From Desulfobacteraceae bacterium (GTDB lineage Bacteria; Desulfobacterota; Desulfobacteria; Desulfobacterales; SKZT01): 51,975 nucleotides of DNA. This document shows positions 16,382 to 51,975 of this stretch, in pieces. Position 1 is the first letter of the stretch. The number at the start of each line of letters is the position of its first letter. Both the position numbers and the translations under genes were made by a program. The notes under the pieces are model-generated. The model had not been told where the DNA came from. It searched no databases and saw only the letters and a list, made by a program, of their open reading frames with translations. The stretch lies in the NCBI GenBank assembly GCA_007127235.1, contig SKZT01000068.1:1-51975 (forward strand). Reading direction: 5' to 3'.

Positions 16382-17389
16382 CTATTTATTGTAGTATTGG
16401 ATATACCATTCAACAAATTTTTGAATTCCTGCTTTTATTGGGGTGTTGGGCTTGAAGCCGATATCCGATACAAGGTCTTCAATATCGGCGAATGTTGACG
16501 GGACATCTCCCGGCTGCATCGGCAAAAATTCTTTTTTTGCTTTTTTCCCCAATACATTTTCAATGGTCTCGATAAATTCCATGAGGGCGACGGGGTTATT
16601 GTTGCCGATGTTGTACAAGCGATATGCAACTTTGCTGGTTCCCGGATCAGGTTTGTCGGAATTCCAGTGAGGATTTCCTGAAGGAATCCGATCCATGATA
16701 TTAACGATACCTTCAACAATGTCATCGATATAGGTAAAATCACGCTCCAGATTTCCATGGTTGAAAACTTTTATGGGCTTGTCAGCCAAAATGGCCCGTG
16801 TAAAAAGAAACAGAGCCATGTCGGGTCTGCCCCATGGCCCATAGACAGTGAAAAATCTTAACCCGGTTGTTGGCAAACGGTATAGGTAGCTGTAGGTGTG
16901 AGCCATGAGTTCATTTGCTTTTTTGGTTGCCGCATATAGACTCACCGGATGGTCCACATTGTGATGTACCGAAAAGGGCATCAACGTATTTAAGCCGTAA
17001 ACGGAACTGCTGGAGGCAAAGATCAGGTGGGGAACATTGAAATGGCGGCACCCTTCAAGAATATTTGTAAAACCCGAAATATTGGCATCAATATAAGCAT
17101 GGGGATTTTCGAGACTGTAACGTACTCCAGCCTGTGCAGCCAGATTAACCACCCTGTCGAAAGAATCTGAATTGAAAACAGATTCCATGGCATTACGATC
17201 CGCGATGTCGAGTTGTTTGAACTTAAAGTTTTTGTAAGACTGAAGAATTGAAAGGCGGGATTTTTTTAGATTAACGTCGTAATAGGTATTCAAATTGTCA
17301 ATTCCCATCACGCTTTTTCCGCTTTCAAGAAGATGTTTACATAAATGAAAACCAATAAATCCCGCAGCCCCTGTAATCAGAATTTTCAT
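16382..17389 (-). CDS. NAD-dependent nucleotide-sugar epimerase (UDP-glucuronate 4-epimerase type)
   Basis: 335 residues, extended SDR fold. The NAD-binding motif [10 protein letters not shown] is at residues 7-16, ASSSSVYG near 125 gives the catalytic Ser/Thr region, and [11 protein letters not shown] near 150 holds the YxxxK pair. The following [19 protein letters not shown] matches UDP-glucuronate 4-epimerases (CapI/LspL group) closely, so interconversion of UDP-glucuronate and UDP-galacturonate for surface polysaccharide is the best guess. It is third in a minus-strand run after murJ and ftsB, with a 20-bp gap to ftsB. Confidence 0.88.
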
Positions 17390-17409
17390 TTAAATACCTC
17401 AGTATTTTC

Positions 17410-17703
17410 TCATTTTAATGGTGATGTTCTGCTCTGAAAAATAAACTCCTCTTTTGAAACAAAACCGAGATCTTTCCGGGCCACACTTCCAACGTAGCTC
17501 AAATCATTTTTCAACCGCTCAATTTCATGTAAAAGCAATTGATTTTCATGGGCTATTTTTTCATTTTTTTCCACAATATTTGCTAGCTCTTCTTTGAGCC
17601 CGTAAAGATCAGTCAATCCTTTTTCGCCAACAATGGCCATCAGCAAAATCGTAAGTAAAATAACACAGACTCCGGACAAGAGTATTTTTTCTTTTGAACT
17701 CAC
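17410..17703 (-). CDS. FtsB/DivIC family septum initiation protein
   Basis: 97 residues with the FtsB layout: a short cytoplasmic start (MSSKEK), one membrane segment (ILLSGVCVILLTILLMAIV), then a periplasmic coiled coil (LKEELANIVEKNEKIAHENQ) and the conserved end of the family around SVARKDLGFVSKEEFIF. FtsB forms a divisome subcomplex with FtsL and FtsQ. It begins 2 bp after the murJ stop and is surely cotranscribed with it, a cell-envelope grouping. Confidence 0.85.
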   Translation of the reverse strand: MSSKEKILLSGVCVILLTILLMAIVGEKGLTDLYGLKEELANIVEKNEKIAHENQLLLHEIERLKNDLSYVGSVARKDLGFVSKEEFIFQSRTSPLK

Positions 17704-44317: not shown

Positions 44318-44352
44318 GAGGCTGTGGAATTTTTCACGGCCTCTTGTTTTTT
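44318..44352 (+). terminator. Second terminator-like hairpin before trpE
   Basis: GAGGCTGTG pairs with CACGGCCTC (nine pairs, one G-U) around GAATTTTT, followed by TTGTTTTTT. It lies between the attenuator and trpE, 20 nt before the ATG. It may be a second attenuation point or shield the trpE ribosome site. Confidence 0.6.
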
Positions 44353-44371
44353 GAAAGAAAGGAACAGGGTG

Positions 44372-45853
44372 ATGAAAATCCGGCAATTTCCCACCAAAGA
44401 GCAGTTTGTTGAGCTTGCTGGTGAAAAAAATGTTATTCCGGTGTGTATCGAGATCCTGGCGGATACGGAGACTCCCGTGAGTCTTTTGAAAAAAATCAGG
44501 AATTATCAAAAACCGGTATTTCTTTTTGAAAGTGTGGAAGGCGGTGAGCGATGGGGTCGCTATAGTTTTCTGGGAACCAGTGCACGCAGCCACATCCGGA
44601 TATATTCCCATGTGGTTAAAATTACCGATAATGCACAGGAAAGAACAATCGAACACGGGGGAAAACCTTTTGACGTGCTGAAAAAAATAATGAGCCGATA
44701 CAATCCGGCTCAATTGCCAGGCCTGCCGCGTTTCTGGGGAGGATTGGTGGGGTATTTAACTTATGAGAGCGTGTCCTTTTTCGAACGTATTCCTCATCAA
44801 TGGCCCAGCGATAAACCATTGGCCAATTTTATTATCCCCGATGAACTGATTATTTTCGATAACATTCGCCATACGTTGATGGCTATTGTGGTTACTTTTC
44901 CCCAGGAAACGAAAAATGCGGCTGCAGAATATGAGCTTGCCATAGGAAGAATCGAGAAGTTGTTAGAGGTGATGGGCAAATCCTTGTTTGACCCGGAGGC
45001 TGAAAAAGTATCTTCATCCCATAAATTAAGCACCTCTATAACCCCCCCTCAGTTCAGGGAAATGGTCCGGAGTGTAAAACGCTATATTGCCGCCGGAGAT
45101 ATCATTCAGGCGGTTATCTCCCAGCCTTTTTCATGTGACACGGTTCCGGATTTATGGAATCTTTACCGTGCCCAGCGGTTTGTCAATCCGTCTCCTTACC
45201 TTTATTTTATGGAGATGGACGACATGGCTCTGGTGGGTTCTTCCCCGGAAACAATGGTGCGTCTGGAAAACCGTGTGGCGACTGTCCGCCCTATTGCGGG
45301 TACACGGGCAAGAGGAAAAAATGAACAGGAAGACCGGGCTTTGGCCGATGAACTTTTAAAAGATGAAAAGGAGCGTGCTGAACATCTGATGCTTGTGGAT
45401 TTGGGCAGAAATGATCTGGGCCGTGTGGCTGAAATCGGTTCGGTTCAGGTCACTGATCTTATGGTTGTCGAGCGTTATTCCCATGTGATGCACCTTGTGT
45501 CCAATATTTGCGGCGATTTGCGACCCGACTGTGATGCTTTTGATCTTTTGGCCGCAACTTTTCCGGCAGGAACCCTTTCAGGAGCTCCAAAAATTAGAGC
45601 CATGGAAATAATCTTCGAAATGGAAAAAGATCCCAGGGGACCTTATGGAGGTGCCATCGGATATATTTCTTTTAGTGGAAACATGGATATGGCAATAACC
45701 ATCCGAACCGCCTGCATAGAAAACAACCGGTTGACCGTACGTGCCGGTGCCGGTATTGTGGCCGATTCAGACCCTGAACATGAACGGGTGGAAACCGTTA
45801 ACAAAGCCATGGCTATTCAGAAGGCTTTGGAGCTGGTTGAACAAAGCAATTAG
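44372..45853 (+). CDS. trpE: Anthranilate synthase component I
   Basis: 493 residues from ATG 44372 (MKIRQFPTKEQF), with AAGGAACAGGG upstream; the frame is open to 44315 but the earlier ATG would overlap the second hairpin. The Trp feedback motif occurs as LFESVEGGERWGRYSFLG near residue 50. The chorismate-binding core has AGDIIQAVISQPF, AGTRARGKNEQEDR, GTLSGAPKIRAM and PYGGAIGYISFSG. It makes anthranilate from chorismate using ammonia from TrpG. First gene of trpEGDCF. Confidence 0.96.
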   Translation: MKIRQFPTKEQFVELAGEKNVIPVCIEILADTETPVSLLKKIRNYQKPVFLFESVEGGERWGRYSFLGTSARSHIRIYSHVVKITDNAQERTIEHGGKPFDVLKKIMSRYNPAQLPGLPRFWGGLVGYLTYESVSFFERIPHQWPSDKPLANFIIPDELIIFDNIRHTLMAIVVTFPQETKNAAAEYELAIGRIEKLLEVMGKSLFDPEAEKVSSSHKLSTSITPPQFREMVRSVKRYIAAGDIIQAVISQPFSCDTVPDLWNLYRAQRFVNPSPYLYFMEMDDMALVGSSPETMVRLENRVATVRPIAGTRARGKNEQEDRALADELLKDEKERAEHLMLVDLGRNDLGRVAEIGSVQVTDLMVVERYSHVMHLVSNICGDLRPDCDAFDLLAATFPAGTLSGAPKIRAMEIIFEMEKDPRGPYGGAIGYISFSGNMDMAITIRTACIENNRLTVRAGAGIVADSDPEHERVETVNKAMAIQKALELVEQSN

Positions 45854-45871
45854 TCTCGGGAGACCATAGAA

Positions 45872-46447
45872 ATGATTTTAATGATTGATAATTATGATTC
45901 CTTTACTTACAATCTTGTTCAATATCTCGGGCAAATCGGTGCCGATGTTAAAGTTGTGCGAAATGATGTTGTTGATGTATCCGAACTGACAACCTGGGAT
46001 ATTCAAGCTATTGTTATTTCTCCTGGACCTGGTGTGCCTGAGACAGCCGGTATTTCTGTTTCTGTCATTCAACACTATTCCGGAAAACTACCCATTTTGG
46101 GAGTCTGTCTGGGGCATCAGTCGATTGGATACGCTTTTGGCGGTAAGGTAATCCGTGCAAAGCGGCTCATGCATGGTAAAACTTCGGTTGTTACGGCGGA
46201 TGGTAAAAGTATCTATGAAGGAATCAAAAAGCCCTTTCAGGCCATGAGGTATCATTCGCTGGTGGTATCCAAAGAAGATTTTCCGGATTGTCTTGAAATT
46301 ACTGCAGAATCAGAGGACGGAGAGATTATGGGAATTCGGCACCGGAGTCATCCAACCGAAGGTATCCAGTTTCATCCCGAATCCATCATGACTCCGGTTG
46401 GGAAACGATTGTTAAGAAATTTTGTGAAGCAGATAAAAAAGCAATAG
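45872..46447 (+). CDS. trpG: Anthranilate synthase glutamine amidotransferase component
   Basis: 191 residues, class I amidotransferase. The start MILMIDNYDSFTYNLVQ, the catalytic Cys in LGVCLGHQSIGYAFGG near residue 79 and the His-Glu pair in GIQFHPESIMT near 172 are intact. It supplies ammonia to TrpE, and such TrpG proteins often also serve PabB. It is 18 bp downstream of trpE. Confidence 0.96.
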   Translation: MILMIDNYDSFTYNLVQYLGQIGADVKVVRNDVVDVSELTTWDIQAIVISPGPGVPETAGISVSVIQHYSGKLPILGVCLGHQSIGYAFGGKVIRAKRLMHGKTSVVTADGKSIYEGIKKPFQAMRYHSLVVSKEDFPDCLEITAESEDGEIMGIRHRSHPTEGIQFHPESIMTPVGKRLLRNFVKQIKKQ

Positions 46448-46462
46448 AGGGGATTATGTATT

Positions 46463-47479
46463 ATGTTTCGAGAAAACCTGATTAAAATTGTGCAGAAAAA
46501 GGATTTAACGGAAGAAGAGATGTCGGAGATGATTACCGATATTTTTTCGGGAGATATTACGGATGCCCAGATTGGAGCCATGATGGCAGCTTTGGCCACA
46601 AAAGGAGAAACCTTCGAGGAACTGGCAGGTGCTGCTAAAGCCATGCGCAGAAAGGCCGTTCGGATTCATTCTTCGGCTTCCACCGTGGTGGATACTTGCG
46701 GAACCGGAGGAGATCAGGCAGATACATTCAATATCTCCACCACCACCGCTTTTGTTGTGGCAGGAGCCGGGGTCACAGTGGCCAAACACGGAAACAGATC
46801 TGTTTCCAGCCAGTCTGGAAGCGCTGATCTTTTGGAAGTACTGGGAATGAAACTGGATATTGAACCCGAACTGGTGGAAGAGGCAATCGAAGAAATCGGT
46901 ATTGGGTTTCTTTTTGCTCCGGTTTACCATGGTGCCATGAAACATGCGGGCAAAGCGCGGAAGGAAGTCGGAATCCGCAGCATTTTCAACATGCTGGGAC
47001 CATTAACCAACCCGGCGGGTGCCAATTGCCAGCTGCTGGGTGTTTATGCTCCGGAACTGACTGAAATGTTCGCCCAGGCACTTCGACTCCTGAAATCCCG
47101 CAGAGCATTTGTTGTCCACGGTCATGAAGGGCTCGATGAAATATCGGTTTGTGCTCCCACAAGGGTTTCGGAACTCAAAGACGGACTTATTCAGACATAT
47201 GACATTCATCCTGAAAACTATTTTGGTGATTTGGCTTCTGCCGAAGATATCCGGGGAGGGCAGCCCAAGGAAAATGCACAGATTACCTTAGCCATTTTCG
47301 ATGGTGAAAAAGGGCCCTGCCGAAATGTTGTTTTGATCAATGCGGCTGCCGCACTGGTGGCTGCGGGGATGGCATCGGATTTTAGCGAAGGAATCAATTT
47401 TGCCCAAAAAAGTATCGACGGTGGTGCTGCAAAAGATAAGCTGAATTCCCTGATTCGTTTCACGCAGGAAAATGGTTAA
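46463..47479 (+). CDS. trpD: Anthranilate phosphoribosyltransferase
   Basis: 338 residues. Motifs: DTCGTGGDQADTFNIST near residue 78 (PRPP binding), AKHGNRSVSSQSGSADLLE near 110, and FAPVYHGAMKHAGKARKEVG near 150, followed by FNMLGPLTNPA. It transfers the phosphoribosyl group of PRPP to anthranilate. Third gene of the operon, separate from trpG (not fused as in enteric bacteria). Confidence 0.97.
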   Translation: MFRENLIKIVQKKDLTEEEMSEMITDIFSGDITDAQIGAMMAALATKGETFEELAGAAKAMRRKAVRIHSSASTVVDTCGTGGDQADTFNISTTTAFVVAGAGVTVAKHGNRSVSSQSGSADLLEVLGMKLDIEPELVEEAIEEIGIGFLFAPVYHGAMKHAGKARKEVGIRSIFNMLGPLTNPAGANCQLLGVYAPELTEMFAQALRLLKSRRAFVVHGHEGLDEISVCAPTRVSELKDGLIQTYDIHPENYFGDLASAEDIRGGQPKENAQITLAIFDGEKGPCRNVVLINAAAALVAAGMASDFSEGINFAQKSIDGGAAKDKLNSLIRFTQENG

Positions 47480-47499
47480 GTATTAGGGGAAATATTATT

Positions 47500-48303
47500 A
47501 TGAGCAAGGATTTTCTCTCCAAAATTATCGACCAAAAAAAACAGGAGCTGATCGAGGCCAAAGCACGAATTCCCGAAAGTGCACTTTATCATGAAGCATT
47601 CAGCAATCATGATCGCAGAGCTTTTTTTGAACCGCTAAAACGCCCCGGTATTAACATAATTGCCGAAATCAAACGCGCATCTCCTTCAAAAGGGCCTATT
47701 AATATTGATCTGGACCCGGCATCCCTTGCAAAGGCTTATGAAAAAGGCGGCGCGGTGGCCCTTTCCGTTTTAACGGAAAAGCAGTTTTTTATGGGTTCCT
47801 CGAAAGATTTGAAAATTGCCAGGGCCGCAACGGCTTTGCCCGTACTCAGAAAAGACTTTATCATTTCCGAATATCAGATATATGAATCCGTTGTAATGGG
47901 AGCTGATGCTGTCCTGCTTATTGTCAGATGCCTTTTTGAGTCTCAGTTGAAAGAGCTGATTGCATTAACTGCCGAGCTGAAACTTGATGCCCTGGTGGAA
48001 ATTCATACGGAAAAAGACCTTGAGACGGCAACCAAAGCCGGTGCAAAGATTATCGGCATTAACAACCGGAACCTTCAAACCTTTGAAACCGATCTTGCAA
48101 CGGCCATGCACCTGGTTTCTTTATTCAAAAAGGATCAGACTCCCGTTGCGGCCAGTGGCATCGAAAACAGGGAAAACATCGAAGCCAACCTGAAATTCGG
48201 CATCAACAATTTTCTCATCGGAGAAAGTCTGGTGAAGGCAAAAGATCCCACAGGCTTTCTTTTTAAACTGAGAGGAAATAACAGGCTTGACACCTCAAAT
48301 TAA
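47500..48303 (+). CDS. trpC: Indole-3-glycerol phosphate synthase
   Basis: 267 residues, TIM barrel. The family signature IIAEIKRASPSKGPI near residue 52 contains the catalytic Lys; LRKDFIISEYQIYES, ADAVLLIVR, IIGINNRNLQTFE and a final NNFLIGESLV follow in order. It closes CdRP to indole-3-glycerol phosphate. Overlaps the start of trpF by 17 bases. Confidence 0.96.
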   Translation: MSKDFLSKIIDQKKQELIEAKARIPESALYHEAFSNHDRRAFFEPLKRPGINIIAEIKRASPSKGPINIDLDPASLAKAYEKGGAVALSVLTEKQFFMGSSKDLKIARAATALPVLRKDFIISEYQIYESVVMGADAVLLIVRCLFESQLKELIALTAELKLDALVEIHTEKDLETATKAGAKIIGINNRNLQTFETDLATAMHLVSLFKKDQTPVAASGIENRENIEANLKFGINNFLIGESLVKAKDPTGFLFKLRGNNRLDTSN

Positions 48304-48955
48304 AATCTGCGGACTAACTAAAACGGATGAAGCCCTAAAATGCGCGGAACTTGGTGCAAATGCCATCGGCATGATTTTTTATGATAAAAGTCCCAGGTTC
48401 ATATCCGATTTCCAGGCCCGGAAAATTTGCGATGCACTTCCGGATACGATCCAGAAAGTCGGTGTATTTGTAAATAAATCCTTTGAAAACATAATGAAAA
48501 AAGTCAAAGCATGCGGTTTGACAGGAATACAGCTTCATGGGCAGGAATTACCTGCGTTGATTGATCGCTTGATGGCCGAAAACCTTCTGGTTATCAAAGC
48601 CCTTTTTGTTGAAAAAAAACCAAATATTTCTGATGTGTCCTCTTTCAGGGCAAGCGCATATCTAGTGGAGTGTGGAAAGGGCAAACTTCCCGGCGGAAAT
48701 GCCTTGGTGTGGAACTGGTCACAAACCCTGGATTTTGGAAAAAAATATCCTTTTATCCTGGCGGGAGGACTGGATCCAAATAATGTGATTCAAGCCATTG
48801 AAGAAAGCATGCCGGATGCTGTGGATGTCAGCTCGGGTGTGGAAAATTCTCCGGGTCAAAAAGATATGAAAAAAGTAAGTGTTTTTATTAAAGCAGCCCA
48901 TGGTGTTTCAAGAAAATATATGCTACAAAAAAAGAACATAAGGAATATTTTTTAG
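48287..48955 (+). CDS. trpF: Phosphoribosylanthranilate isomerase
   Basis: 222 residues from TTG 48287, overlapping trpC; GAGAGG lies before it. TIM-barrel motifs: IKICGLTKTDEAL with the catalytic Cys near residue 8, GMIFYDKSPRFI, VGVFVNKSFENI, IQLHG, and the phosphate site LAGGLDPNNV near 155 with DVSSGVENSPG near 180. The tail (KYMLQKKNIRNIF) is longer than usual. trpB and trpA do not follow, so the last steps must be encoded elsewhere. Confidence 0.93.
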   Translation: MTPQIKICGLTKTDEALKCAELGANAIGMIFYDKSPRFISDFQARKICDALPDTIQKVGVFVNKSFENIMKKVKACGLTGIQLHGQELPALIDRLMAENLLVIKALFVEKKPNISDVSSFRASAYLVECGKGKLPGGNALVWNWSQTLDFGKKYPFILAGGLDPNNVIQAIEESMPDAVDVSSGVENSPGQKDMKKVSVFIKAAHGVSRKYMLQKKNIRNIF

Positions 48956-49036
48956 ACACAATGACCTTATGGTCGGTCAATTTTTTTATCCAGACGAGTG
49001 CTTGTGCAGCACTATGTTTTTTCGGGGAAATATCTG

Positions 49037-49507
49037 ATGAAAATATGGAAATATTTAAGTGCCAACAAGATATTTTTGGACATTGCGCTGGAAAATAAAG
49101 AAAAATTGATTCAGTTTCTTGCACAAATTCCTGAAAAATTGGGTTATGCAGCTTCTATGGATGATGTTGCCGAAAGGTTAAGAAATCGCGAAAAAACCAT
49201 GAGTACCGGAATCGGCAACGGTGTGGCCATACCTCATGCCGTGCATCCAAATATTGCCGATCCTATCCTGGTATTTGTCCGGCCCGAATCCCCCCTGGAA
49301 TTTGATGCTCTGGATAATGAACCTGTTGACATCATATTTGGTTTAATCATGCCTGAAAGAAAAACTCACCTGCATATCCGGCTTCTTGCCGGCATTTCCA
49401 GGCTTTGTAAAAATCAGGCATTTGCGGAGGCTGCTCGAACCATCAATGATCCGGTGATTCTTCTTGAGAATATCCGTGCATTGGAAAAAGATATGGCCTT
49501 TCACTAA
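49037..49507 (+). CDS. PTS EIIA domain protein (PtsN-like)
   Basis: 156 residues from ATG 49037 (MKIWKYLSANKIF), preceded by GGGGAAAT; a TTG at 48998 is also in frame. The phosphorylatable His lies in GVAIPHAVHPN near residue 72, and FALDNEPVDIIFGLIMPE-type strands follow. It matches the fructose/nitrogen-regulatory EIIA fold used in phosphorelay control rather than sugar import. It follows trpF by about 80 bp and is followed by a P-II-like gene, hinting at a nitrogen or metabolic-control pair. Confidence 0.88.
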   Translation: MKIWKYLSANKIFLDIALENKEKLIQFLAQIPEKLGYAASMDDVAERLRNREKTMSTGIGNGVAIPHAVHPNIADPILVFVRPESPLEFDALDNEPVDIIFGLIMPERKTHLHIRLLAGISRLCKNQAFAEAARTINDPVILLENIRALEKDMAFH

Positions 49508-49541
49508 TTTTGCTGAATTTAAATGATATGGGTAATCATAA

Positions 49542-49925
49542 GTGTATCTGCTGATTGTTGTCATCAATGACGAGGATCTTTTGGAAGATTTAATCACCGG
49601 TTGGCTGGACATCGGTATTACCGGAGCTACGGTCATGGAAAGTACCGATTTGCTTCAGCTCATCAGCCACCATATTCCAATCTTTGCCGGTTTCAGAAGT
49701 TTCGCAGGAGCCGGAGTTCAAAGTAATAAAACAATGTTGATTGGAATTGAAAAAAAACAAGTCCTCGATGACGCTGTTGAATTTTTGGAAAGTACATGCA
49801 AAAAAAATCATAAACCCTCACAGGGAGTTTATTTCATAATTCCACTTATCAGGTTTTGCCGTCTGGGTACTGAACTGTCTGCTTCGGAATTGCTGGATCA
49901 TTTGGAAAAAAAACTCGGGGGATAG
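49542..49925 (+). CDS. P-II-like (GlnB-fold) small regulatory protein
   Basis: 127 residues from GTG 49542. The ferredoxin-like P-II fold is suggested by YLLIVVINDEDLLEDLITGW, then GITGATVMESTDLLQL, FAGFRSFAGAG and the final FIIPLIRFCRLG. No PII T-loop tyrosine signature is visible, so it is a P-II-like relative, not GlnB itself. The gene sits 34 bp after the PtsN-like gene and is probably cotranscribed. Confidence 0.65.
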   Translation: MYLLIVVINDEDLLEDLITGWLDIGITGATVMESTDLLQLISHHIPIFAGFRSFAGAGVQSNKTMLIGIEKKQVLDDAVEFLESTCKKNHKPSQGVYFIIPLIRFCRLGTELSASELLDHLEKKLGG

Positions 49926-49955
49926 TGACTCTATCAACCAATCACCCCAAATTTG

Positions 49956-50505
49956 TTATAACCAGGAAATTTTCAATTTCAAAAGCTCATCGTCCAGCCC
50001 ATAACGAACCACGTCTACACGGTCGCTGTTTTGGGAAACAAAATCTCCTGTCATAACCGGAAGCTGAAATGGGAAGAACCCAGGATTGTTCAACAATAAC
50101 CCCAATGTTGCCCTGCCTTCAGGAGTAGCGAGCAGCGCTGCTTCAACCATCAGAATTGCCAGATCCTTATCGACAATTTTCACCGGGGCTGCTTTCTTGT
50201 AGCATCCCTTACAGTCGGAATCTTTCAGCACTCCCCAGGCTACAAACGATCGCATGGTATAACGGGCATTTCTGGCAACTGTTTCCCTGTCGCCATAATG
50301 TTCTTTGAGTCGATTGAAAACTTGAGACTGGGTAATTTGGTCTTGGAGATTCAGCAATCGTCCGGTTTGTTTGTAGATAGTTATCAAGTTCCAGACGAAT
50401 CTCTCTTTCGGACATCCCTACCAGCATCATCTGAACGGTCCGGTCCATCCAATGCTTTTGAATGGTCTGTTTAATGCCTATTTTTTCATGTCTTTGGTTT
50501 ATCAC
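49956..50505 (-). pseudogene. BREX-associated small protein (brxA position), disrupted by frameshift or internal deletion
   Basis: Two overlapping frames. The first begins at GTG 50505 in a GTGA overlap with the pglZ remnant, with AGGAGG upstream, and reads IKQTIQKHWMDRTVQMMLVG up to LDNYLQT near 50365. The second resumes at QTGRLLNLQDQITQSQVFN and continues through ETVARNARYTMRSFVAWGVL and FFPFQLPVMTGDFVSQNSDR to 49956. The sequence CAAACAAACC at the join could be a 4-bp duplication; removing one copy restores the frame. From memory, relatives have about 60-80 residues between these blocks, so a larger deletion is also possible. Confidence 0.65.
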
Positions 50506-51474
50506 CGTGTCCTCCTTTCAAATTTCACAAGGGGCACGATGACTTCTTCAATGGCAATGCCTCCATGGCCGACAATTATGTTTCCATCGTTTATAAAGGC
50601 ATCCCGACCTCCGGCAATGAGTGGAAAATAATTTTCCGGAAGTCCGACCGGTTGCCATTCCTGGGCAAACGTAAATGATGCGGTAACCTGTGAACGGAGT
50701 TCCGGCGTGGGGTAAATACGAACCCGTTCACCGCGGGTTTCGGCAATCACCCCTTCAGAGGGTCTTCCCTTGCCTTCGCATTCGATATTGCCGTGATCGG
50801 CCGTGAGCCACACCTCATAACCATAATCCAGCAGATACCCAATCAGTGCACCGAGGAATCCACCCTGGCACCACTGCCTGATCTGATTATGCATCCCGGC
50901 CGAACCAAGCTGCATGCCGTGCATGATTTTATCGACCTTCCAGGAAAAGGTTATCGATGTAGACCTTGATGTCCTCATGGTCGAACGGCAGGTGATCCGG
51001 GCCGGGATATTTGAAGCCGTATTCCAGAAACTCATCCCAGACCTGATGCAAATTGCCAAGCCTGGAAAGAAATACCGGCCAGCGTTCCTGCAAAAAGGCG
51101 AAGAATGCCTTGTCGTCCGGAACGATTTCAGAGACCGGCCAGGTCTTTAATCCTTCATGGCTTTTGAGGACCTGAACGAGTCGCTCGGCCAGCATCAGAG
51201 GGATCTGAAGATTCCCATAATGAAGACGAAGCAAAGCGCGAAGCAGCTCCACCTCTTTGGCAATCAGTTCTGTGGTAATGCCGAACACATGGCGGAGTAT
51301 GAAATCCTTGGTGGCGTTGTCGCCCATATGATCCGGGGACGCCTTGCTTTGGGCATCAAAGAGTGCATCGAGCAGGCTCCGGTCGAGCTTTTCAATGACC
51401 GGGTAGCTCAGGTTGGGGAATATCTTTCCGAGGTTAAATGACAGTTTGCGGCCGGCCTGGAGCAGGCTTCCCAT
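50502..51474 (-). pseudogene. pglZ: BREX PglZ phosphatase-domain protein, N-terminally and internally deleted
   Basis: The first frame (51474-50929) reads LLQAGRKLSFNLGKIFPNLS to VYIDNLFLEGR and stops; the second frame (from about 50946 to 50502) reads KVDKIMHGMQLGSAGMHNQI, WLTADHGNIECEGKGRPSEG and a final HGGIAIEEVIVPLVKFERR. The TADHGN motif of the alkaline-phosphatase superfamily PglZ domain is retained. The N-terminal about 100 residues and, by comparison with remembered relatives, a stretch of about 300 between the two frames including the first half of the catalytic domain are absent. The start is fused to a methylase fragment. A functional product is very unlikely. Confidence 0.75.
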
Positions 51475-51975
51475 ATGCAGTTCAACTCGGAGTACATAAG
51501 GTTGTCACCGAATGGTGGATCAACGAATATGTAATCAACTGTGCTGTTTGGGATATCTTGAAGATTTGTAGCAGAACCTGTGCTGACAATGCACCCGTTA
51601 GCTCTTGAGCCAGGCTCGACCAATGCACTTTTTATTCTCAAATCGAAGCGTTCGAATACATTGGTCTCAATTGAGAGCGAAGGTACGTACCATGTACCTC
51701 TAAGGCTGGTTATCTGCCCTCCCTTTTTGCCAAAGTAATTCGACATATGAAGGCGATTCTCGCGACCACACCAGGGTAGTGTAGAGGTGAACCAGAACAG
51801 TAGAGCACGGTAGCCCTCAGCAAGTCTTCTCAAAGACGAAAGAGCCAGCGAATTGCGTTTTGTGTAGAAATGATGAACATGTGTTATGCCAGCAGGATCG
51901 TTTCTTCGGCTTTCATCTCCTTCAGGCATGCGTGTTATTGGAAACCACTGGTCGAACGGAATCTTCTCGACTTTA
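51464..51975 (-). pseudogene. DNA methylase fragment (BREX-like), C-terminally truncated; 5' part outside the window
   Basis: The frame enters at the right edge (KVEKIPFDQWFPITRMPEGD), passes GITHVHHFYTKRN near 51890 and reaches the methylase motif IV, VDPPFGDNLMYSELN, near 51500, then WEA at about 51468. After that the translation is out-of-frame pglZ sequence, stopping at 51408. The block VHHFYTKRN plus DPPFGxNxxYS is typical of adenine-specific DNA methylases next to PglZ. The C-terminal half of the enzyme is missing in the window. Confidence 0.75.

What the first reader, a model, noticed from the sequence alone, without database searches (positions are those of the whole stretch)
49956..51975. 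Decayed BREX type 3-like defence island
A methylase, PglZ and a small terminal gene lie in the type 3 order, but no intact gene remains and the helicase expected between methylase and pglZ is absent. The remaining blocks are close to family consensus, suggesting loss is recent.
Basis: partly seen in the sequence, partly recalled or inferred. Interest (0 to 1): 0.55.

Follow-up and report, generated by a model that had tools for sequence, protein, structure and literature searches.

The report
Broken remnant of a BREX-3 operon
At the edge of this contig lies the deletion-riddled remnant of a known type of anti-phage defence operon (BREX type 3); every visible gene in it is broken, so it is an ordinary case of a lost defence system.

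Summary
Window 49971-51974 (minus strand) carries five blocks of a type 3 BREX operon in the standard order: middle of pglXI, two pieces of pglZ, two pieces of brxA. Three deletions separate the blocks: pglXI near residue 521 is joined to pglZ residue 92, removing brxHII; pglZ 269-521 is gone; about 215 bp of brxA is gone. Each shifts the frame, so no visible gene is intact. The blocks hold no stop in 2007 bp, so the loss looks recent, but that test is weak. The contig ends inside pglXI; brxF, brxC and the rest of pglXI were not found elsewhere in the 95%-complete assembly. A congener has BREX-3 pieces at another site, with 309 bp of brxA 92% identical against 76% for chromosome beside the remnant, which suggests transfer. 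It is a dead copy of a known system; interest is low. Side results: related islands reach 97% identity in other phyla, similarity stops at the end of brxA in 35 of 80 loci, and the remnant abuts a genome-wide mosaic repeat.

The parts
51468..51974 (-). pglXI (BREX-3 methylase) middle piece, about residues 347-521; runs off the contig end upstream, cut by the first deletion downstream
   Evidence: PADLOC PDLC02541 E 2.8e-45; no stop in the frame. A DPPF stretch is visible in the translation; that this is the catalytic motif is recalled
51464..51470 (-). junction J1: pglXI joined out of frame to pglZ residue 92; rest of pglXI, brxHII and the pglZ start are missing
   Evidence: pglXI similarity ends at island position 508, pglZ similarity starts at 510
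50938..51465 (-). pglZ piece 1, residues 92-268
   Evidence: PADLOC PDLC02558 E 2.5e-81; 83.2% DNA identity to the intact pglZ of G012 over 531 bp
50936..50939 (-). junction J2: about 0.75 kb of pglZ (residues 269-521) deleted, 4 bp (AAGG) counted in the alignments of both sides; frameshift with a stop at 50929
   Evidence: blastn to G012: 14749 followed by 15504; stop
50505..50939 (-). pglZ piece 2, residues 522-666, with the native stop overlapping the brxA GTG start
   Evidence: PADLOC E 2.5e-74; 78.4% DNA identity to G012 over 473 bp that run into brxA
50368..50505 (-). brxA piece 1, residues 1 to about 46-50, with its native GTG start
   Evidence: PADLOC PDLC02444 E 5.4e-10
50366..50375 (-). 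junction J3: about 215 bp of brxA deleted, frame shifted
   Evidence: 97 bp here against 312 bp in G012 between the two alignments
49971..50369 (-). brxA piece 2, residues about 112-248
   Evidence: PADLOC E 1.3e-58; 92% DNA identity over 309 bp to same-genus genome G001
49924..49972 (+). copy of a dispersed intergenic repeat between the host gene and the island remnant; it supplies the last codons and stop of the brxA frame
   Evidence: 41 matches in the own genome, this copy included, 40 of them at E < 1e-3; a lower bound, as 40 of 78 candidates were scored
49542..49925 (+). host gene at the edge: small P-II/c-di-AMP-receptor-like protein, not part of the island
   Evidence: weak Pfam matches below cut-off; collinear with G001 C50 up to 49918

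Best explanation
A type 3 BREX operon (brxF-brxC-pglXI-[accessory genes]-brxHII-pglZ-brxA) was acquired horizontally next to the chromosomal P-II-like gene and then lost its function through at least three deletions, which look like illegitimate recombination between very short matches. What is left makes no working BREX protein and protects nothing. Shown: identity of the blocks, their order, the three out-of-frame junctions, no other core gene found in the assembly, and no BREX at the matching site of a congener. Inferred: that an intact operon once stood here, that it came by transfer, that the deletions are illegitimate recombination, and that the loss is recent.
For: PADLOC and NCBIfam matches. 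Alignment to the intact operon of G012 in the same order: 83%, 78% and 74% identity blocks over pglZ and brxA separated by clean jumps, with that operon annotated gene by gene. Out-of-frame junctions and zero internal stops. No brxC, brxF or further pglXI in the own genome, while the same searches find brxC and brxF in G001 and G012 and a pglXI end in G001. The BrxH model gives four partial stretches in the own genome, but it also rings in 14 of 14 control genomes, so these are generic helicase matches. At the matching site in G001 the P-II-like gene is followed by a cold-shock gene and an antiporter (named by eye), with no BREX. In 80 related loci the check for the J2 or J3 breakpoint found none; J1 was not checked.
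Against: No reads could be inspected, and the remnant lies at a contig end. The 5' half of the island is unseen, so an intact brxF-brxC-pglXI start could lie on an unassembled piece (completeness 95.3%, 333 contigs). The pglXI block has no DNA match to G012 and only short ones to three loci, so the bases shared at J1 could not be judged. The PglXI model also rings in 4 of 14 control genomes, so the methylase label alone would be weaker than the PglZ and BrxA ones.
Confidence: 0.88

Rival explanations
1. Assembly artefact: an intact BREX-3 operon exists and the contig end is a chimera of several variants in a mixed sample.
For: The remnant is at a contig end; in same-genus G001 the BREX-3 pieces found also sit at contig starts (C80:1-315, C71:3-275, C63:3-311), so these islands seem to assemble badly.
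Against: The matches seen are 4 bp at J2 and a few bp at J3, far shorter than usual assembly k-mers (recalled), so an assembler would need reads across them. No N appears in 46000-51975. The own genome has no second pglZ, brxA or pglXI.
Confidence: 0.08
2. A reduced but still working element: one of the leftover pieces (for example the C-terminal BrxA piece, 143 aa, or the C-terminal PglZ piece) is kept for a function of its own, such as DNA binding by the BrxA winged-helix part.
For: All blocks are free of stops; type 3 BrxA is described as three HTH-like modules (PMC12839542, passage seen).
Against: Every piece is out of frame with its neighbour across a junction, and only brxA piece 1 keeps its native start. 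Stop-free frames are expected anyway at low divergence. Expression was not testable.
Confidence: 0.03

Closest known systems
BREX type 3 (brxF, brxC, pglXI/brxXI, brxHII, pglZ, brxA), intact example G012:C1:705285-721696
   Same: Gene families and gene order of the preserved blocks; 74-83% DNA identity in the pglZ and brxA blocks; pglZ stop overlapping the brxA GTG start.
   Different: brxHII and most of the coding sequence are missing; all visible genes frameshifted; brxF and brxC not found; the pglXI block has no DNA match to G012.
BREX-3 pieces of same-genus genome G001 (contigs C80, C71, C63)
   Same: brxA 92% identical over 309 bp; brxF directly before brxC on C80.
   Different: Different chromosomal surroundings (by eye: a transhydrogenase gene beside brxF, a lactate-utilisation-type gene beside brxA); the pieces seen are open frames but each is cut by a contig start, except brxF, which is whole.
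DUF499/DUF1156 BREX-related systems (DUF499 systems described in PMC12839542, section 25, part 1 of 2, read)
   Same: Related methylases.
   Different: The window methylase scores far better with PglXI (2.8e-45) than with DUF1156_MTase (2.7e-4).

Membership tests
BREX type 3 | Type-3 specific methylase PglXI/BrxXI | tested here: met
   Best match PDLC02541 PglXI, residues 347-521, E 2.8e-45; piece only
BREX type 3 | Type-3 PglZ | tested here: met
   NF033449 BREX_PglZ_3 is best in NCBIfam for both pieces (2.5e-63, 5.6e-61), each below the 250-bit whole-protein cut-off; PDLC02558
BREX type 3 | BrxA as last core gene directly after pglZ | tested here: met
   Two pieces, PDLC02444; pglZ stop overlaps the brxA start as in G012
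BREX type 3 | BrxHII helicase between pglXI and pglZ | tested here: not met
   Absent; the pglXI-pglZ joint leaves no room; only four partial, generic matches in the genome
BREX type 3 | BrxC and BrxF at the start of the operon | tested here: not met
   No match at E <= 0.001 in the own genome; the searches find them in G001 and G012. The contig ends before their expected place, so loss from the genome is likely, not proved
Functional BREX type 3 system | Intact core reading frames | tested here: not met
   Three frameshifting deletions

The most novel reading that the evidence does not exclude
Type 3 BREX behaves as a portable cassette with a fixed 3' edge inside the last codons of brxA. Islands of very different hosts share that edge, and the window remnant keeps the same edge, here against a dispersed repeat and the host gene, although the rest of the operon is gone.
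Probability: 0.12. Interest if true: 0.5.

Novelty: new member of a known kind. Interest (0 to 1): 0.18.

Why it matters
It is one more documented case of gain and loss of a costly defence system. In this genus related BREX-3 islands stand at two different places, and one copy has been cut to pieces while its remaining coding blocks are still recognisable. The comparison also shows how freely type 3 BREX moves between phyla. Nothing here changes the understanding of BREX itself.

Tried and rejected
Tried: a viral-contig scan with pglZ piece 1 gave 14 pattern matches, none confirmed as a relative. The other flank of the island in the own genome could not be linked: the antiporter that lies downstream of this site in G001 is on contig C284, and similarity stops about 0.3 kb before that contig's end. 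The cold-shock gene copy on C81 has a chemotaxis-methylase-like broken gene upstream, not BREX (named by eye); the copies on C57, C107 and C213 were not examined for neighbours. The lactate-utilisation region of G001 has only a 66-67% match in the own genome, so that site could not be compared. The dN/dS test on brxA piece 2 (window against G001: 18 nonsynonymous, 7 synonymous differences, ratio about 0.8; window against four other relatives 0.07-0.10, against G012 0.13) is suggestive but covers only 306 bp, and 13 of the 18 amino-acid differences fall on the G001 branch, 3 on the window's, 2 unresolved. It therefore does not date the loss in the window.

Considered and rejected: a programmed rearrangement, because by eye the three junctions share no motif (no motif search was run); and a DUF1156/DUF499 system, because the scores favour PglXI.

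Paper searches gave background only. One paper was opened: PMC12839542 (passages; part 1 of 2 of section 25). The rest were seen as search listings.

Full report
Place and host. The window is the whole of contig C242 of a 3.27 Mb, 333-contig genome, 95.3% complete. The island is the last 2 kb of the contig, after tryptophan genes (named by eye), a PTS EIIA gene and a small P-II-like gene.

Identity of the blocks. PADLOC gives PglXI 347-521, PglZ 92-268 and 522-666, and BrxA 1-50 and 112-248. NCBIfam gives BREX_PglZ_3 for both PglZ pieces, below its whole-protein cut-off. In Pfam only the second PglZ piece passes a cut-off (PglZ domain, E 1.3e-10). A pglZ-family match at E <= 0.001 is in 29 of 146 genomes searched, the own one included; many of these are weak or partial. 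The intact operon of G012 reads brxF, brxC, pglXI, ietA, ietS, a BrxH helicase, pglZ, brxA, hamA. PADLOC labels the helicase model BrxHI|BrxHII; by system type I call it brxHII.

Breakpoints. Against G012 the island aligns as 531 bp at 83%, 473 bp at 78% and 398 bp at 74%. J1: pglXI similarity (to L192) ends at island position 508 and pglZ starts at 510. In G012 the two points are roughly 8 kb apart (my estimate from gene coordinates, ietA and ietS included). J2: 14749 is followed by 15504, with four bases (AAGG) counted on both sides. J3: 97 bp stand for 312 bp, with the joint in a CAAAC-like stretch. All three change frame: the pglXI frame stops at 51408, pglZ piece 1 stops at 50929, and brxA piece 1 runs on in the wrong frame to 50209. 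Deletion by illegitimate recombination is an inference from the short matches; the strain's own ancestor is not available.

State of decay. The five blocks total 2007 bp and hold no stop. Random change at 1%, 2.6% and 5% would leave no stop with probability 0.49, 0.18 and 0.04 in 1000 trials each, so old decay is unlikely but the date is loose. In pglZ the window differs from relatives with dN/dS 0.09-0.17 (piece 1, four relatives) and 0.07-0.10 (piece 2, four relatives), against 0-0.09 (three intact pairs) and 0.05-0.13 (three intact pairs): mostly the trace of past constraint, and no clear excess. brxA piece 2 differs from G001 by 18 nonsynonymous and 7 synonymous changes, while L122, L165, L128 and L120 differ from G012 by 0-2 nonsynonymous and 9-17 synonymous. 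Of the 18 amino-acid differences, 13 are derived in G001, 3 in the window and 2 unresolved, with five outgroup islands. So, on 306 bp, the congener's brxA rather than the window's shows most of the lost constraint; this does not help to date the window's loss.

Rest of the system. brxC and brxF have no match in the own genome at E <= 0.001, while the same searches find brxC in G001, G012 and weakly G002, and brxF in G001 and G012. PglXI and BrxA match only the window pieces. In the own genome the BrxH model finds four partial stretches in its helicase part; it also rings in 14 of 14 controls. Absence is likely but not proved.

Arrival by transfer. Window 48292-49918 is collinear with G001 C50 at 76% identity, and 44335-48278 with G001 C70 at 76%. 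G001 stretches beyond the site match the own genome at 74-81% in the longer hits, cold-shock gene copies at 84-89%. brxA piece 2 is 92% identical, over only 309 bp. In G001 that brxA is on C63 next to a lactate-utilisation-type gene, its brxF is on C80 next to a transhydrogenase gene, and a pglXI end is on C71 followed by other genes; neighbours are named by eye, and that the three contigs belong to one island is an assumption. At the window's own site G001 has a cold-shock gene and an antiporter (by eye). So the two species hold related islands in different surroundings.

Wider picture. A genome scan with G012 PglZ kept 80 of 116 confirmed loci. The brxH-pglZ-brxA segment of G012 is 96% identical in Dichelobacter nodosus, 94% in Lysobacter ruishenii, 92% in Thiocapsa sp. 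KS1, 90% in Thiohalocapsa marina and 81% in Akkermansia glycaniphila (records without a MAG label in the title), and 97% in a Clostridiales bin. Other loci of the 80 go down to about 64-70%. The middle of pglXI and the stretch between pglXI and brxH lack DNA similarity to G012 in many of these islands. DNA similarity to G012 stops between 16660 and 16730, the end of brxA, in 35 of 80 loci with at least 300 bp left; it goes on into hamAB in 4 of 80; the other 41 had no hit there, met a contig end or stopped elsewhere, L117 for instance at 16853. In 10 of the 35 the last block is at least 88% identical. The window and G001 stop at the same point. Since this is simply the end of the last core gene, a fixed recombination edge is possible but unproved.

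Verdict. It is ordinary in kind.

Noticed in passing
window 49924-49972 and at least 40 further places in the own genome: A dispersed intergenic repeat with a shared tail of about 35 bp (ending CCCCCAAATYCGTTATAACCAG in most copies seen) that is preceded by different hairpin modules: of 33 copies classed by simple patterns (window copy included), 9 carry one type, 9 a second, 8 a third, 7 none of these. 41 matches in this genome at E <= 10, a lower bound (40 of 78 candidates scored); one clear match in G002 (3.6e-6), otherwise only weak ones (E > 0.04) in G001, G002 and G003. The window copy has none of the three hairpins and separates the host gene from the island.
   Followed up: partly
L113, L115, L116, L120, L122, L128, L165, L166, L145, L177 against L043: Type 3 BREX islands about 88-97% identical over most of the brxH-pglZ-brxA part in different phyla, often with the centre of the methylase and the genes between methylase and helicase exchanged; similarity ends at the last codons of brxA in 8 of these 10 and runs on into hamAB in L145 and L165.
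   Followed up: partly
L041:1-311, L109:1-275, L205:1-330 (G001 contigs C63, C71, C80): In the same-genus genome the brxA, pglXI and brxC pieces found all lie at contig starts, which may mean that the widely shared core breaks assemblies; BREX-3 may be under-counted in draft genomes.
   Followed up: no
L043:7382-11045 and 16715-17533: The intact island of G012 carries IetAS-type genes inside the BREX operon between pglXI and the helicase, and a HamA gene directly after brxA.
   Followed up: no
L024 (G029 C77) and L180: Two relatives have an internal gap in pglZ: model residues 418-477 missing in G029 inside an open frame of 607 aa, and about 180 bp missing in L180; possibly tolerated shortening.
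   Followed up: no
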